A stretch of 36,570 bases of DNA. It comes from a bacterium. Lineage in GTDB: Bacteria; Hydrothermota; Hydrothermia; LBFQ01; DSFT01. Of the stretch, positions 1 through 6,465 are shown piece after piece. The stretch spans positions 1-36,570 of the forward strand of contig JAUQPS010000006.1 of assembly GCA_030550205.1 (NCBI GenBank). The letters run 5' to 3'. The position numbers were made by a program, and so were the translations under genes. The notes under the pieces are model-generated. The model ran no database searches and had not been told where the DNA came from. It saw only the letters and a list, made by a program, of their open reading frames with translations. The stretch's first letter is position 1. Every line of letters begins with the position of its first letter.

Positions 1-2
1 AA

Positions 3-1106
3 CCTATTATTTTTTATTATGGCATTCTTTTAAAAGCTCTTATTTTAAATAAGCATAAAGGAGAAAATTTATTTTTAATAGCTGACCATGATGAAAGGAA
101 AGAAATTTTTACATATACAATTGATAACAATTTTCAAATACATAAGGTATATTTTTTAAGGCTTGAAGAAAATACAATTTTTGAAAAATTTCCAAAAATA
201 ACTAAAAGCTTAATTTTTAGTTTTTATAAGGAACTAAAACAATTAACACATAAAAAGCTATTGAATAATTTAGAAAGGGCTTTTGAAATAGCTTTTGAAT
301 TAAATAAAGAAATTGATGATTATTCAAGTTTTATGATAAATTGGACTTTTAAATACTTTCAAATAGATGTTAAAGTGATAAAAGTTTCAGAAATTTCAAA
401 AAGTGAAAATTTTAAAAATTTTGTAATTGAAATATCAAATAGTGATTTTAAGGAAAAATTCAATGAAATTTTAATAAACTTAAAAAGAAAACCTTTTAGA
501 ATTCTCCAGCAAAATGAACTTCCTTTTTGGAAAGTTGTGAATAATAAAAGGCTTCCACTTATGATGGAAGATTTAAATAATATAGATAAAATTGAAGTTA
601 GACCAAGAGCTTATACATTAACTTTATTTTTTAGGAAAAATGGTTATGCTTTTTTACATGGATTTGGAGGTTATGGCTATGATAAAATAATTGAATATAT
701 TTATAATGATTTAGCACCTAAATTTTTAATTAGTGGAGATAAGTTTTTGGATTTGGATATTGAAATTAAAAATTTTGAAGAATTTTTTAAGCTTAAAAAT
801 ATAATAAGTGATTTAAAATGGCATAGTGAGTATTTATTTAAATGCAATTGTCCTATTAAGGATATTAATAATTTTTTTAATTGGAATTTAAAATTGTCTG
901 AAAATCTACTAAAACTTGAAAAATTTTTAGGAATTTTAGAAAGACCAAATGATTTTAAATTTTTTAGAGATATAAATGAAAAGTTATTTCTTCAAGCAAA
1001 GACAAGTAGTATTTATAGTTATTTGTTAGAAATATATAAAAAAGCAAAAGCTTGCACTTTTAGAGAATTTCCATTTTTTATGTTTTATGGTGACCAACTA
1101 TCATAA
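3..1106 (+). CDS. BshC-like protein, C-terminal part (5' end outside window)
   Basis: The frame is open from base 3, so the gene starts upstream of the window; 367 residues are visible. Two stretches recall the BshC family (putative cysteine-adding enzyme of bacillithiol synthesis). Near the visible N terminus is FYYGILLKALILNKH followed by FLIADHDERKE, which resembles the BshC segment with a conserved DHD. In the middle is RPRAYTLTLFFRKNGYAFLHG and then GGYGYDKIIEYIY, which matches the RPRA-LTLTLF ... HG-GG-YD pattern I know from BshC-like proteins of several phyla. Lysine and phenylalanine are very frequent, as in the other resident genes. The last 22 bases overlap a convergent gene. Family membership is moderately supported; whether this organism makes bacillithiol cannot be told here. 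Confidence 0.5.
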   Translation, partial: PIIFYYGILLKALILNKHKGENLFLIADHDERKEIFTYTIDNNFQIHKVYFLRLEENTIFEKFPKITKSLIFSFYKELKQLTHKKLLNNLERAFEIAFELNKEIDDYSSFMINWTFKYFQIDVKVIKVSEISKSENFKNFVIEISNSDFKEKFNEILINLKRKPFRILQQNELPFWKVVNNKRLPLMMEDLNNIDKIEVRPRAYTLTLFFRKNGYAFLHGFGGYGYDKIIEYIYNDLAPKFLISGDKFLDLDIEIKNFEEFFKLKNIISDLKWHSEYLFKCNCPIKDINNFFNWNLKLSENLLKLEKFLGILERPNDFKFFRDINEKLFLQAKTSSIYSYLLEIYKKAKACTFREFPFFMFYGDQLS

Positions 1107-1742: not shown

Positions 1743-1779
1743 AAATAGAGTAGTGCCAAAACAAAAAGGAGGTAATGAG

Positions 1780-2289
1780 ATGAGCTCAACTATACACAAA
1801 AAGATGGGTAAAATTGTATATTTCTTCGTGTTCCTGGGATTTGTTTTGTTCTTGGTTACTTGTAGTGGTGCTCAATCAGAAAAACCCCCTGCTACATCAT
1901 CAAAAACTGTCCAGTCCCAAACATCTGGAAGTGGGATTAACATGTGTAACATTTTGACCAAGGAAGAGGTAAGTGAGATTCTTGGTAAGAAAATCGTTGT
2001 CGCTAAGCTTGAACATCAAACTGGCGGTTTTCAGTGTGGTTATTATGGTCCAGACAACGATGGTCGGGCTTTCGTTGATTATGATATAAGTGAGGCTAGC
2101 CAGTATCGTTGGGAGCTTGCGAAACCTAAGGAGGTTATTCCTGGTCTTGGCGAGGTTTCTTGGAATGGTTTTTGGCTTTTTGCCTGGATCAATGGTGGAT
2201 TATTATCAATTCACGTGGTAGGAGTGGGTGAAAAGGGTAAGGATTTGGCTATTAGTATAGCGAAGAAAGTAAAGGGTCGGATAAAGTAG
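1780..2289 (+). CDS. Lipoprotein with cysteine-containing repeat-family domain (paralog 1)
   Basis: ATG 1780 is preferred because AAAGGAGG (1765-1772) lies seven bases upstream; an earlier in-frame GTG at 1753 would put the SD inside the gene. The N terminus has a basic start, a hydrophobic core and LVTC, a lipobox, so this is probably a lipoprotein of about 145 mature residues with a Ser/Thr/Pro-rich linker. The domain then starts with CNILTKEEVSEILGKKI and includes FQCGYYG, EVIPGLGEVSW, GGLLSI and a C-terminal AKKVKGRIK. The same order of motifs occurs in the proteins at 2313 and 3052, so the three are tandem paralogs. The family recalls small exported proteins such as DUF3558, but I cannot name it securely. 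At 2101-2160, 30 of 60 bases are G or C, against 10 of 60 at 781-840, which suggests transfer. Confidence 0.75.
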   Translation: MSSTIHKKMGKIVYFFVFLGFVLFLVTCSGAQSEKPPATSSKTVQSQTSGSGINMCNILTKEEVSEILGKKIVVAKLEHQTGGFQCGYYGPDNDGRAFVDYDISEASQYRWELAKPKEVIPGLGEVSWNGFWLFAWINGGLLSIHVVGVGEKGKDLAISIAKKVKGRIK

Positions 2290-2312
2290 TATTTTAGCGT
2301 GAGGTATGCAAA

Positions 2313-2744
2313 ATGAATGTAATTTTTATAATAGCTATGCTTTTTGAAAAGGGTAATGCCTGTGATCTTTTGGCTAAGAAAGAGGTGGAAGAGATCATGG
2401 GTGAGAAGATTGATTCTGTTGAGTTACAAGCTGGATACGGAAACTGCATTTACTATAAGAAAGATAAAGTTTTTGGACAGGTAATGAATCTTCCTATTGC
2501 TACTGTTGGTTTTTCAAGGAATGATGTTCAGGCTATTTGGAGTTATTGGTCTTCTATATCTAAGAAGGAGATTATTTCTGATGTTGGTGATGGGGCTATT
2601 TGGGCGCCAGAGTATGATTTTTTCGTTTGTCGTGTAAAGGGAGGGCTGTTGATGATTTCATTGGGAGGAAGCTCTGACGATGATAAAAAGAAGGAGATAG
2701 TAATTAAGTTGGCAAAAAAAGTTATAACTCGGATAAAGCCATAA
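2313..2744 (+). CDS. Small exported-type protein, paralog 2
   Basis: This 143-residue protein is closely similar to the one at 3052. Both have C-x-LL, an EVEEI-G-K-DSV stretch, QAGYGNCIYYK / QSGYGNCIYYR, a W-YW segment, the GDGA-W motif and CRVKGGLLMI. It starts at ATG 2313, eight bases after GAGG (2301-2304), 23 bases after the preceding stop. The N terminus is odd: MNVIFIIAML is hydrophobic but has no positive charge and is followed by FEKGNAC, so it is a weak signal peptide and may be degenerate compared with paralog 3. Function unknown. A strong terminator lies about 70 bases downstream. Confidence 0.7.
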   Translation: MNVIFIIAMLFEKGNACDLLAKKEVEEIMGEKIDSVELQAGYGNCIYYKKDKVFGQVMNLPIATVGFSRNDVQAIWSYWSSISKKEIISDVGDGAIWAPEYDFFVCRVKGGLLMISLGGSSDDDKKKEIVIKLAKKVITRIKP

Positions 2745-2812
2745 AGATGTGTGAGAATCTTTAATGATGAAACATCTAGTAGGCACATGTGTATATGTTT
2801 AGATAACTCCTT

Positions 2813-2834
2813 GCCCCCACTTGGGGGCTTTTTA
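2813..2834 (+). terminator. Rho-independent terminator after paralog 2
   Basis: GCCCCC (2813-2818), a four-base ACTT loop, GGGGGC (2823-2828) and a T-rich tail form a clear intrinsic terminator. Such a GC-rich stem is exceptional in this AT-rich window. Confidence 0.85.
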
Positions 2835-2872
2835 TACTTCATGTTTGATAATTATTAGAAATGGAGGCCTTG

Positions 2873-3040
2873 ATGATAACAGGAACTGACGCGAATGTTG
2901 GCAAGTTGGCTATTACACTGGCAGGTATCATCGTGCTTGTTATTTCTTCTACTCTAAGTGGAATCAAGCCACAAACTCCTATCTCAGAGGAGAGAAAAGC
3001 AGGGATTTTTCGGAGGCTAAAAGCTTTTGAAATACCCTGA
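2873..3040 (+). CDS. Small single-pass membrane protein (55 aa)
   Basis: This short frame is open from ATG 2873 (or ATG 2861, four codons earlier) to TGA 3038-3040. GGAGG at 2863-2867 is five bases before ATG 2873, which decides the start. The product has one hydrophobic segment (LAITLAGIIVLVISSTLSG) and then a polar, basic C-terminal tail with RRLKAF. It lies between the terminator and paralog 3, 11 bases before the latter's start, so the two are probably co-transcribed. Its G+C level matches the paralogs. It is not recognised; a role in membrane anchoring or a small toxin-like peptide are only possibilities. Confidence 0.5.
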   Translation: MITGTDANVGKLAITLAGIIVLVISSTLSGIKPQTPISEERKAGIFRRLKAFEIP

Positions 3041-3051
3041 GGTAATATAAC

Positions 3052-3507
3052 ATGAGGCTAAAAATCTATAACATTATGGTAGTAGCCATGTTCTTAACGA
3101 CATGGCAATTAGGGTATGCTGATACATGTGGCCTTTTGACCGAGGGAGAAGTGGAAGAGATTACCGGTCAGAAGGTTGATAGTGTGGGGGTACAATCAGG
3201 TTATGGAAATTGCATATACTATAGAAACGTAAATATCTTCGGGCAGATTATGAAAGCTCCTCTGGTTACCGTTGGTTACACAAGGAGTGATGTCCAGTCC
3301 CGTTGGGATTACTGGAATTCCAGACCAGATAAGGAGGTTATCCCTGGGCTTGGCGATGGAGCTGTGTGGTCACCGGGCGATGCCTTTCTGGTTTGTCGGG
3401 TCAAGGGTGGACTGTTAATGATCATGATATGGGGAGAAGTAGGCGATGGTTCAAAGAAGGACATGGCCGTTCAATTGGCCAGAAAGGCGATAACTCGGAT
3501 AAAATAG
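3052..3507 (+). CDS. Small exported protein, paralog 3
   Basis: This 151-residue protein has a good signal peptide: MRLK, a hydrophobic core, and likely cleavage after GYA, leaving DTCGLLTEGEVEEITGQKV. It shares with paralog 2 the YGNCIYY, GDGAVW and CRVKGGLLMI motifs and a C-terminal AxKAITRIK, and more distantly with paralog 1. Two conserved cysteines (in CGLL and GNC) plus a third in VCRVKGG suggest a disulfide-stabilised extracytoplasmic domain. GAGGT (3039-3043) is eight bases before ATG. The three genes show clear divergence, so this is an old tandem duplication or a multigene cassette acquired as a unit. No function assigned. Confidence 0.75.
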   Translation: MRLKIYNIMVVAMFLTTWQLGYADTCGLLTEGEVEEITGQKVDSVGVQSGYGNCIYYRNVNIFGQIMKAPLVTVGYTRSDVQSRWDYWNSRPDKEVIPGLGDGAVWSPGDAFLVCRVKGGLLMIMIWGEVGDGSKKDMAVQLARKAITRIK

Positions 3508-3622: not shown

Positions 3623-4204
3623 GTGACTTCCAACTTATATATTATTAATGTGGATAGGATAGATTTGTATACAATTTTTTGTGATATGGATAATACCTTG
3701 GTTTATACTAATTATGCTAATTATATAGCTTACAAGAGGGCTATAAGGGATGTATTAGATGAAAATTTTGTTTTCAATTCAAAATTAAGGCTTACGCGTG
3801 AGGTTATAAAGAAATTATTTCCTAATATAGATTATAAACAATATAATGCTATAATTAAACTTAAAGAGAAGTATTATAGTGATTACCTTTTTCTAACGAA
3901 GTTAAACTTGAATTTAGTTAATTTATTAAAAAAGTTTAAGAAAACAAGTAGAATAGTTTTAGTATCGTCAAGTAGGAAAATTAGAGTCCATCAGATATTG
4001 GATTATTATAAAGATGATATTCCAAAAGGAAAATTTTTTAATAAATATGAATATGCATTGTATGTTATGGGTGTTGATTCATCAAGAGTTATAATATATG
4101 AAGATGATTTAAATCAAGTTAAAAGCGCACTTGACTTTGGCATACCTTTGAAAAATATCGTTAATATAGACATAGGGGGTGATTATGAAAAAGTTTATTA
4201 TTAA
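3623..4204 (+). CDS. HAD-superfamily phosphatase, partner of the PRTase-DprA fusion
   Basis: The haloacid-dehalogenase signature is present: DMDNTL (nucleophile Asp21 and Asp23 counted from GTG 3623), motif II in VLVSSS, a lysine near KYEYAL, and motif IV in IIYEDDLNQVKSALDFGIP. About 190 residues with a helical cap between motifs I and II fit a small phosphatase of HAD type acting on a small phosphorylated molecule. The start is uncertain: GTG 3623 has GGAAGGGGG 11 bases upstream, while GTG 3650 gives a compact MDRIDLYTIFCDMDNTL start. The stop lies 20 bases inside the next gene, so the two are translationally coupled and likely act together, for example with the HAD acting on a ribose-phosphate or nucleotide product of the neighbouring phosphoribosyltransferase domain. 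That link is inference. Confidence 0.75.
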   Translation: MTSNLYIINVDRIDLYTIFCDMDNTLVYTNYANYIAYKRAIRDVLDENFVFNSKLRLTREVIKKLFPNIDYKQYNAIIKLKEKYYSDYLFLTKLNLNLVNLLKKFKKTSRIVLVSSSRKIRVHQILDYYKDDIPKGKFFNKYEYALYVMGVDSSRVIIYEDDLNQVKSALDFGIPLKNIVNIDIGGDYEKVYY

Positions 4205-5819
4205 AAAGAACAACTTTCTTTCAATAGATGTTTTGGGTTTCTATCATACTTACTATCTTGGATTTAATAAGCCCTGTAATCCGGACTACTTGAATATACT
4301 TAAAAATGATTTTAATAAACAATCACCAGCTTTGTTAAATAAAGCTTGTCAAGAAGTAGAAAAGATATTAGAGCAGGATTTACCTAAAATTCCAAAGGAG
4401 TTAGGTATTGAAAGGATGACTGTATGTGTTGTTCCCAGGGCTAAAGAACAAAGAAAATATCATTCAAATCAATTATTATTTAAGCAGGCAGTTAAAAATG
4501 TAGTATCAAAATTTAAAAATATATTTGAAGATGGCACAGATTATATACTTAGGATTAAAGATACTTTTACAACACATCTTGGAAATATAAAAGGTAATTA
4601 TGGTCCTGAGCCTTATCCTGGAATTACAAAAGATACTTGTAATATATCACAAAATGTAAAAGGTAAGGATATATTACTTGTTGATGATATTTATACACTA
4701 GGAGTTAATGTTGATGAAGATGCTATTGAGGCGTTATTTAAGAATGGTGCAAACTCTGTTACTTTCTATGCGGTTGCCTATACTCTTAAAAATTATACTC
4801 AAAATGCTTTAAATATCCTTACACTTCTTGAATATAAAGGGATTGGAAAGGATTTTATCGTTGAAAATATTCAAAAAATTAAAGAGATGGAAGAAAATAT
4901 AGATGATTTAGTTGATTGGGTAAATAGCATAATAAAGGAAAAAATTAGTATAAATGATTTTAAGCAAAAAAGAGAAAGTATTAAAAAGGAACTACAAAAA
5001 TGTGCTGATAATGATATTTATACTGTTGCTATTGGTGATGAAGCATATTCGGGACTTGTTGAACCTCGTATATCTCGTATAAATAAAATAAATAATAATG
5101 AAAAACCAATAGTGCTATTTCTAAAAGGGGATTTGAATTTACTATTAGATGAAAATAACTTAAATGTAGCGGTAATTGGCACTAGATATCCTAATGAAGA
5201 AGATGAACTTTTAGAAAAAGAAATTATTTGGTATTTATTAAGGAGAAGTAAGAAAGTTACTATACTTAGTGGTTTGGCAATTGGGTGTGATACAATAGCT
5301 CATAAGTCTGCTATTAAATATGGGGGTAAAACAATAGCAATTCTTCCAAGTCCAATTTTAAATATATTGCCTAAGAAAAATGAAAAACTTGCTAAGAAGA
5401 TTTTTGATAAGTGTGGATTACTAATATCTGAATATTACAAAGACCCTATTTCTAAGCAGGAATTAAAACGCAGGTATGTAGAGCGCGATCGCTTACAAGC
5501 TCTATTTAGTGATTGTATTATATTAATTGCAAGTCATGATATAAAGTATAAGCAAATTCTGAAAGGTCAAAAAAATGTTGATTTTGGTTCAAGACATGCA
5601 ATGAGATATGCAAAGAAGTTTGGAATTCTAAGAGCGGTTGTATATGATCATCAAAAACATTCAAATGATTTAAGATATAGCTTAAATAAAAAATTAGCAA
5701 ATGAAAAGTATGTAATAGCTATTAATGAGAGTAATAAAGTTGAAGTCATTAAGAAAATTTTGGAGAAGATTGAAAAAAGATATGATTTTAACGATATATG
5801 GGGAAAAAGGGGTTTATAA
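4185..5819 (+). CDS. Phosphoribosyltransferase-DprA (SMF) fusion protein, ShosTA-like candidate
   Basis: The protein has about 544 residues. Residues 1-200 carry a type I phosphoribosyltransferase fold with the PRPP-binding loop ILLVDDIYTLGVNVDEDAI (Asp167/Asp168). Residues 205-280 are a charged helical linker. From about 288 the sequence is DprA/SMF-like: YSGLVEPRISRI, then VLFLKGD, VAVIGTR (Gly332), LSGLAIGCDTIAHKSA (about 361-376), LLISEYYKD, RRYVERDRLQALFSD and GSRHAMRYAKKFG. That is the order of the DprA Rossmann fold. ATG 4185 is preferred over GTG 4179 because AGGGGGTG lies directly upstream. PRTase and DprA-like proteins occur as the separate toxin and antitoxin of the anti-phage system ShosTA (established knowledge); here they are one chain, with a HAD gene in front. 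Natural-transformation DprA is less likely because of the PRTase domain. Confidence 0.8.
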   Translation: MKKFIIKKNNFLSIDVLGFYHTYYLGFNKPCNPDYLNILKNDFNKQSPALLNKACQEVEKILEQDLPKIPKELGIERMTVCVVPRAKEQRKYHSNQLLFKQAVKNVVSKFKNIFEDGTDYILRIKDTFTTHLGNIKGNYGPEPYPGITKDTCNISQNVKGKDILLVDDIYTLGVNVDEDAIEALFKNGANSVTFYAVAYTLKNYTQNALNILTLLEYKGIGKDFIVENIQKIKEMEENIDDLVDWVNSIIKEKISINDFKQKRESIKKELQKCADNDIYTVAIGDEAYSGLVEPRISRINKINNNEKPIVLFLKGDLNLLLDENNLNVAVIGTRYPNEEDELLEKEIIWYLLRRSKKVTILSGLAIGCDTIAHKSAIKYGGKTIAILPSPILNILPKKNEKLAKKIFDKCGLLISEYYKDPISKQELKRRYVERDRLQALFSDCIILIASHDIKYKQILKGQKNVDFGSRHAMRYAKKFGILRAVVYDHQKHSNDLRYSLNKKLANEKYVIAINESNKVEVIKKILEKIEKRYDFNDIWGKRGL

Positions 5820-5829
5820 CTAACTTAAT

Positions 5830-6465
5830 TTAAATACTATTTAAAATTCCAAAATATCCATTCTTTGAAAAAATAATATGCTCTAAAAGTTCAATTTCTA
5901 AATGTTTTAAAAATTGTTTTAATTTTTTTGTAAATTCTATATCTTGACTACTCGGTATTAAGCTATTTGAAGGATGATTATGGGCTAGAATTAAGTAATT
6001 AGCATTATTTAATATGCAAATTTCAACAATATCTCTATAATGAACATTTACTATATTTTTTCTACCTTTTGCAAGCATTTCTACTCTTATTAATCTTTTA
6101 TATCCATCAAGTAAAATTGCAAGTAATATCTCACTTGTTTCACTTGTATAAGGAATTAAAATTTTATAAATATCATCCAAACTTTTAATAATTTCTCCTG
6201 AATTTGAAAATAATCTTCTTCCGAGTTCTATTGAGCTTATAATTCTTGAAGCTTTTGCAATTCCAAGACCATCAATTTGAAGTAATGTTTTAATATCAAT
6301 GTCTTTTAAGTTTTTTAAACCAATCGTATTAACAATTTTCCTTGACAATTGAAATACATCTTCATTTTTATTTCCTGTTCCAATAATAATAGCAATAAGT
6401 TCTTCATCTTTAAGATTTTTTACTCCAAGTTTTATTAATTTTTCTCTTGGTAAAATTTTATTCAT
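5830..6465 (-). CDS. radC: RadC-family JAB/MPN protein
   Basis: The 211-residue product has an N-terminal helix-hairpin-helix region (about 1-85, with IDGLGIAKASRI) and a C-terminal JAMM metallopeptidase-like domain. The metal motif is complete: AHNHPSNSLIPSSQD with His162, His164 and Asp175. It is the last gene of the rpsO-pnp-radC run; its start overlaps the end of pnp by eight bases and has no SD or promoter element, so translation is likely coupled. The cellular role of RadC is unsettled despite its old repair name. It converges with the PRTase-DprA gene, 10 bases apart, and looks resident rather than part of the island because its base use matches pnp. Confidence 0.9.
   Translation of the reverse strand: MNKILPREKLIKLGVKNLKDEELIAIIIGTGNKNEDVFQLSRKIVNTIGLKNLKDIDIKTLLQIDGLGIAKASRIISSIELGRRLFSNSGEIIKSLDDIYKILIPYTSETSEILLAILLDGYKRLIRVEMLAKGRKNIVNVHYRDIVEICILNNANYLILAHNHPSNSLIPSSQDIEFTKKLKQFLKHLEIELLEHIIFSKNGYFGILNSI

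What the first reader, a model, noticed from the sequence alone, without database searches (positions are those of the whole stretch)
3623..5819. Fused phosphoribosyltransferase-DprA protein with overlapping HAD phosphatase: candidate defence system
One chain joins a PRPP-binding transferase (LLVDDIYTLG) with a DprA/SMF domain (GTR, SGLAIGCDTIAH). In ShosTA these activities are two proteins, a toxic PRTase and a DprA-like antitoxin (established for that system). Here the fusion would tether the toxin to its sensor/inhibitor, and a HAD phosphatase is translationally coupled upstream, possibly detoxifying or completing a nucleotide product. It sits in an island with its own SD-type translation signals and foreign-looking genes.
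Basis: partly seen in the sequence, partly recalled or inferred. Interest (0 to 1): 0.85.

Follow-up and report, generated by a model that had tools for sequence, protein, structure and literature searches.

The report
ShosTA-like defence cassette, rearranged domains
A bacterial gene joins, in one protein, a suspected nucleotide-making toxin and the DNA-binding partner that normally controls it from a separate gene, next to a phosphatase gene; it looks like a rearranged form of the known anti-phage system ShosTA rather than a new kind of system.

Summary
Window 4185-5819 (+) encodes one 544-residue chain: an N-terminal PRPP-binding phosphoribosyltransferase (PRTase) and a C-terminal DprA domain, joined with almost no linker. 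A HAD phosphatase gene (3623-4204) overlaps it by 20 nt. The ShosTA-like reading is supported, with one correction: the HAD is not an extra part. Canonical ShosT is itself a HAD-PRTase fusion, so the window holds the same three domains with the fusion point moved: HAD + [PRTase-DprA] instead of [HAD-PRTase] + DprA. The closest relatives (a Synechocystis plasmid, bacteria of several phyla) keep PRTase and DprA as adjacent separate genes, some with HAD. The PRTase-DprA fusion was seen only here: not in six full relatives nor in 53 viral DprA loci. The genome has its own housekeeping DprA; the fused DprA groups with PRTase-associated DprAs. DNA similarity to the sister genome begins exactly at the cassette's downstream edge. 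Most likely it is an anti-phage abortive-infection device in which the DprA part senses DNA and restrains the PRTase in cis. Toxicity, protection and regulation are inferred. A one-base assembly error at the junction is not excluded. New variant of a known kind.

The parts
3623..4204 (+). HAD-superfamily phosphatase, 193 aa, helical cap between motifs I and II; start codon uncertain (GTG 3623 or downstream)
3683..3697 (+). HAD motif I DMDNT (catalytic Asp pair intact, unlike E. coli ShosT, which reads FSIAD)
4174..4179 (+). Shine-Dalgarno AGGGGG inside the HAD gene, 5 nt before ATG 4185
4185..4793 (+). PRTase domain of the fusion (residues 1-203), likely true start ATG 4185
4671..4703 (+). PRPP loop ILLVDDIYTLG
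4794..5819 (+). DprA/SLOG domain of the fusion (residues 204-544): helical N-terminus with KGIGK, Rossmann core, no C-terminal extension like that of the housekeeping DprA
5268..5303 (+). DprA signature SGLAIGCDTIAH
5811..5830 (.). downstream edge of the accessory block: DNA similarity to the sister genome (79%) begins here and continues through radC-pnp-rpsO

Best explanation
A ShosTA-like anti-phage cassette with rearranged domains. The HAD phosphatase is a separate protein, and the PRTase (toxin arm) is tethered to the DprA-like DNA-binding protein (sensor and restraint) in one chain. Proposed working: in uninfected cells the DprA part holds the PRTase off in cis. When phage replication or stalled host replication exposes ssDNA or an SSB/recombination complex, the DprA part binds it and releases the PRTase. 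The PRTase then spends PRPP to make or deplete a purine-type nucleotide, helped by the HAD, which removes pyrophosphate or dephosphorylates the product. The resulting nucleotide imbalance damages DNA and stops infection. Shown here: domains, motifs, gene order, relatives, predicted fold, accessory position. Inferred: toxicity, trigger, direction of control, role of the HAD, phage protection.
For: Same three domains as canonical ShosTA: E. coli ShosT carries HAD 30-127 and PRTase 303-357 and matches PDB ShosT 8zvb/8zvc end to end. The fusion model matches ShosA 8zva (E 1.2e-15), and its first PRTase match among the PDB hits listed is ShosT-PRPP 8zvc (E 1.3e-3). Profile comparison joins its PRTase with ShosT-type PRTases (prob 96.6) and its HAD with ShosT-type HADs (95.9). 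HAD, PRTase and DprA recur together in other orders and fusions: Synechocystis pSYLB, Caldilineales, Clostridia, Segatella, Sinorhizobium, Bermanella, Priestia, Psychrobacter. 23 of 53 viral DprA loci sit beside a HAD-PRTase fusion. Synechocystis has AbiD next to the cassette (E 9e-72); a mobile-element copy pairs HAD and PRTase beside an integrase. The fused DprA groups with PRTase-associated DprAs, not with the housekeeping DprA. Mechanistic background: ShosT as PRTase and pyrophosphatase disturbing purine metabolism, ShosA binding DNA (PMC12593503); phage protection by a DprA-PRTase pair (PMC9122126); activation linked to phage SSB or replication complexes (PMC10732053).
Against: No other PRTase-DprA fusion was found, so the one-chain form rests on one MAG sequence. 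Three of six full relatives lack a detectable HAD next to the pair, so the HAD is not essential to the family. The PADLOC match to ShosT is weak (4e-6) and that model also rings in 13 of 14 control genomes. No recognised defence gene was found among the neighbouring proteins scanned. No functional data.
Confidence: 0.66

Rival explanations
1. The fusion is an assembly or sequencing artefact: one base is missing at the junction, and in reality PRTase and DprA are two overlapping genes as in all relatives. The cassette is then an ordinary distant ShosTA-like three-gene system.
For: All six full relatives have separate, adjacent or overlapping genes. One extra base anywhere from 4744 to about 4812 would give a PRTase stop (4791 or 4833) and leave upstream ATGs in the DprA frame; a run of five A lies in that stretch.
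Against: The error would have to fall within about 70 nt of a 1.6-kb gene. Single-base losses are rare in short-read assemblies (general knowledge). All other motifs are intact.
Confidence: 0.12
2. A nucleotide-metabolite or DNA-repair module (PRTase and HAD making or trimming a nucleotide, DprA guiding it to ssDNA) that is not a toxin and serves repair or DNA uptake.
For: PRTase plus HAD pairs are proposed to make nucleotide signals in the Ter system (PMC7824862); ComFC takes part in DNA transport and ssDNA handling in transformation (PMC9005727, abstract). HAD catalytic residues are intact.
Against: The genome already has a DprA with the usual C-terminal extension. Distribution is sporadic: about 1 in 200-400 genomes of the groups searched. 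Copies lie on a plasmid, on a mobile element and in an accessory block, which fits defence better than housekeeping.
Confidence: 0.15
3. A decaying or inactive remnant in which the fusion is a by-product of degeneration.
For: Only one instance; HAD scores are low.
Against: All residues invariant among the relatives are kept, including the PRPP loop and DprA signatures; the model is confident.
Confidence: 0.07

Closest known systems
HAD-PRTase-DprA operon of Synechocystis sp. PCC 6714 plasmid pSYLB (D082_RS16550-16540)
   Same: same gene order; 40%, 54% and 48% identity for HAD, PRTase and DprA
   Different: three separate genes; no fusion
ShosTA (E. coli APEC O1 / P2-type prophages; PDB 8zvb ShosT, 8zva ShosA)
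   Same: same three domains: HAD, PRTase, DprA-like; same fold of PRTase and DprA parts
   Different: there HAD is fused to the PRTase (ShosT) and DprA is separate (ShosA); here HAD is separate and PRTase is fused to DprA; E. coli ShosT HAD has lost motif I while this one keeps it; full-length sequence identity is low
PsyrTA / RqlHI
   Same: PRTase toxin kept in check by a DprA-like partner
   Different: there the PRTase is fused to a RecQ-type helicase; none here
ComFC and DprA of natural transformation
   Same: same two superfamilies (PRTase, DprA)
   Different: separate housekeeping genes; the genome's own DprA is a different, distant protein

Membership tests
ShosTA | DprA-like (SLOG) protein outside the housekeeping DprA clade, linked to a PRTase | tested here: met
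ShosTA | PRTase of ShosT type with PRPP loop | tested here: met
   (superfamily-level; first PRTase among listed PDB fold matches is ShosT)
ShosTA | HAD and PRTase in one polypeptide (ShosT) | tested here: not met
   HAD is a separate gene; canonical ShosT is fused
ShosTA | toxin and antitoxin are two separate proteins | tested here: not met
   single ORF 4185-5819 with no start near the junction
ShosTA | match to curated ShosT/ShosA profile models | tested here: inconclusive
   ShosA 1.7e-47 and ShosT 4e-6, but the housekeeping DprA scores higher (183.8 vs 160.1 bits) and the ShosT model rings in 13 of 14 controls
ShosTA | toxicity of the PRTase, neutralisation by DprA, phage protection | not testable with these tools
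   needs experiments
PsyrTA / RqlHI | RecQ-type helicase fused to PRTase | tested here: not met
   no helicase domain; contrast L078
Housekeeping DprA (competence) | C-terminal extension (presumed winged helix) and placement with genomic DprAs | tested here: not met
   separate housekeeping copy in L001
ComFC | ComF family score above cut-off | tested here: not met
   19.0 bits against a cut-off of 233.55
Ter-type PRTase/HAD system | TerB/TerC/TerD-type neighbours | tested here: not met
   none among the neighbouring proteins scanned with Pfam

The most novel reading that the evidence does not exclude
A single-chain switch: a PRTase toxin covalently joined to its own DprA-type DNA sensor/inhibitor, so that a system known as a two-protein toxin-antitoxin pair works here by intramolecular allostery rather than by loss of a labile antitoxin, with the HAD acting in trans.
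Probability: 0.4. Interest if true: 0.62.

Novelty: new variant of a known kind. Interest (0 to 1): 0.45.

Why it matters
In the ShosTA literature that I could read, it is not settled how the DprA-like protein controls the PRTase: by binding it, by repairing its damage, or by being removed. A natural protein in which the two are fused argues that they act in contact or in cis at a 1:1 ratio, and it speaks against antitoxin loss as the trigger in this version. Comparison across layouts also shows that HAD, PRTase and DprA are exchangeable modules of one system, and that the HAD belongs with the toxin arm.

Tried and rejected
PADLOC scores as proof of ShosTA membership: rejected, because the models also match the genome's housekeeping DprA and common PRTases. 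A single-protein scan of genome contigs found nothing; the two-sequence PRTase alignment found five loci (one of them, L091, is only a short partial match). A first viral scan with the PRTase pair found nothing; with five sequences it found one relative. Second DprA copies in the same phylum turned out to be PsyrTA-like (L072, L078, L082), a PRTase-DprA gene pair (L071) or lone DprAs, not relatives of the fusion. Phylum or class searches of about 400 genomes each gave only one extra relative (G1010). The HAD model is of low confidence (pLDDT 66), so its substrate was not inferred from it.

Full report
What is there. The two ORFs are at the stated coordinates. The second ORF opens at GTG 4179, but that codon lies partly inside a Shine-Dalgarno sequence (AGGGGG 4174-4179), and ATG 4185 follows 5 nt later, so the chain probably has 544 residues and overlaps the HAD gene by 20 nt. 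Pfam finds DprA with E=2.1e-32 and the PRTase only weakly. The PRTase identification rests on the intact PRPP loop, on 46-54% identity to its homologues with more than 50 invariant residues, and on the fold: AlphaFold2 gives pLDDT 86.6, and among PDB matches DprA and ShosA lead, with ShosT-PRPP (8zvc) the first PRTase in the list. The HAD is divergent but has DMDNT, a Ser-rich motif II and an acidic motif IV, and its low-confidence model matches HAD-IA phosphatases and a pyrophosphatase.

Relatives. The nearest named relative is a Synechocystis plasmid carrying HAD, PRTase and DprA in the same order as three genes. The group is rare: 1 of 400, 1 of 391 and 2 of 369 genomes in the groups searched, counting the centre genomes themselves. 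None fuses PRTase to DprA.

The HAD. The ShosT whose structure is solved (8zvb; the P2-type copy L092 matches it end to end) is itself a HAD-PRTase protein; so are the ShosT-type proteins of PfAC02a, Psychrobacter and Priestia and those beside 23 of 53 viral DprA loci. Elsewhere HAD is a separate neighbour. The window is thus another permutation of three modules, with the PRTase joined to DprA instead of to HAD. In E. coli ShosT the HAD has lost the motif I aspartates (MYLKAVIFSIAD); here they are present.

Is it ShosTA? It resembles ShosTA in anatomy but fails two layout features (one toxin polypeptide with HAD; two separate proteins). I therefore call it ShosTA-like, not a member. PADLOC scores do not decide: the genome's own housekeeping DprA gets 183.8 bits from the ShosA model against 160.1 for the fusion, and the ShosT model matches 13 of 14 control genomes. 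A maximum-likelihood tree of DprA domains puts the window with its six relatives (support about 94) among PRTase-associated DprAs and away from the housekeeping DprAs; some deep nodes are weak.

Context. The same genus's other genome (G001) shares radC-pnp-rpsO, and DNA similarity starts at window position about 5811, at the last codons of the fusion. The genes upstream that were searched (3-1106 and the gene at 3052-3507) have no counterpart in the sister and family genomes. No tRNA was found in the window. The block has 21-42% GC while the rest of the window is mostly 22-34%, so composition alone does not mark the cassette itself (about 27%) as foreign. Most other neighbours scanned are housekeeping genes, and none matched a defence family. 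In Synechocystis an AbiD gene lies just upstream.

Mechanism. From the literature read here: a review of Pu et al. 2025 (PMC12593503) says that ShosT acts as a PRTase and pyrophosphatase, disturbs purine pools, and causes DNA duplications, filamentation and death; that ShosA binds DNA; and that T7 Gp0.7 is a trigger. A DprA-PRTase pair protects against T7 and lambda (PMC9122126). ShosTA is listed among systems activated by phage SSB (PMC10732053). [quoted passage not shown] From this I infer that the DprA part restrains the tethered PRTase directly and releases it on sensing abnormal DNA, and that the HAD assists the PRTase. The HAD-PRTase fusion in ShosT and the HAD-PRTase pair without DprA place the HAD on the toxin side, but its absence from half of the relatives shows that it is dispensable for some.

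Doubt about the fusion. A single missing base in the stretch 4744 to about 4812 would turn two overlapping genes into this one. Without reads this cannot be excluded; I give it about 12%.

Noticed in passing
window 1753-3507: Three tandem, related small secreted-looking proteins (the first weakly DUF3558-like; 52% and 42% identity to the third); the one searched has no match in the three nearest genomes.
   Followed up: partly
L073:1414-4308 (-), genome G044 of the same phylum: A 964-aa protein joining a DprA domain (N-terminal) to an N6 DNA methylase and a type I specificity-like region: a second kind of DprA fusion to a defence enzyme.
   Followed up: partly
L173:2402-4597: Mobile-element contig with a HAD (fused to a 290-aa N-terminal region) next to a PRTase of the window's type, no DprA, beside a tyrosine integrase and a mobilisation-type gene.
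   Followed up: partly
PADLOC models PDLC03961, PDLC03962 (tested on L001 and the window): The ShosA and ShosT models match housekeeping DprA and common PRTases; annotation by these models alone will over-call ShosTA components.
   Followed up: yes
L092:1199-2473 (E. coli-type ShosT): The HAD domain of canonical E. coli ShosT lacks the motif I aspartates, while ShosT-like proteins of PfAC02a and Psychrobacter keep them.
   Followed up: partly
window 1-127 and G000:C184 right end: The last 127 bases of contig C184 equal the first 127 of the window (assembly overlap), placing a purH-like gene just to the left of the window.
   Followed up: yes
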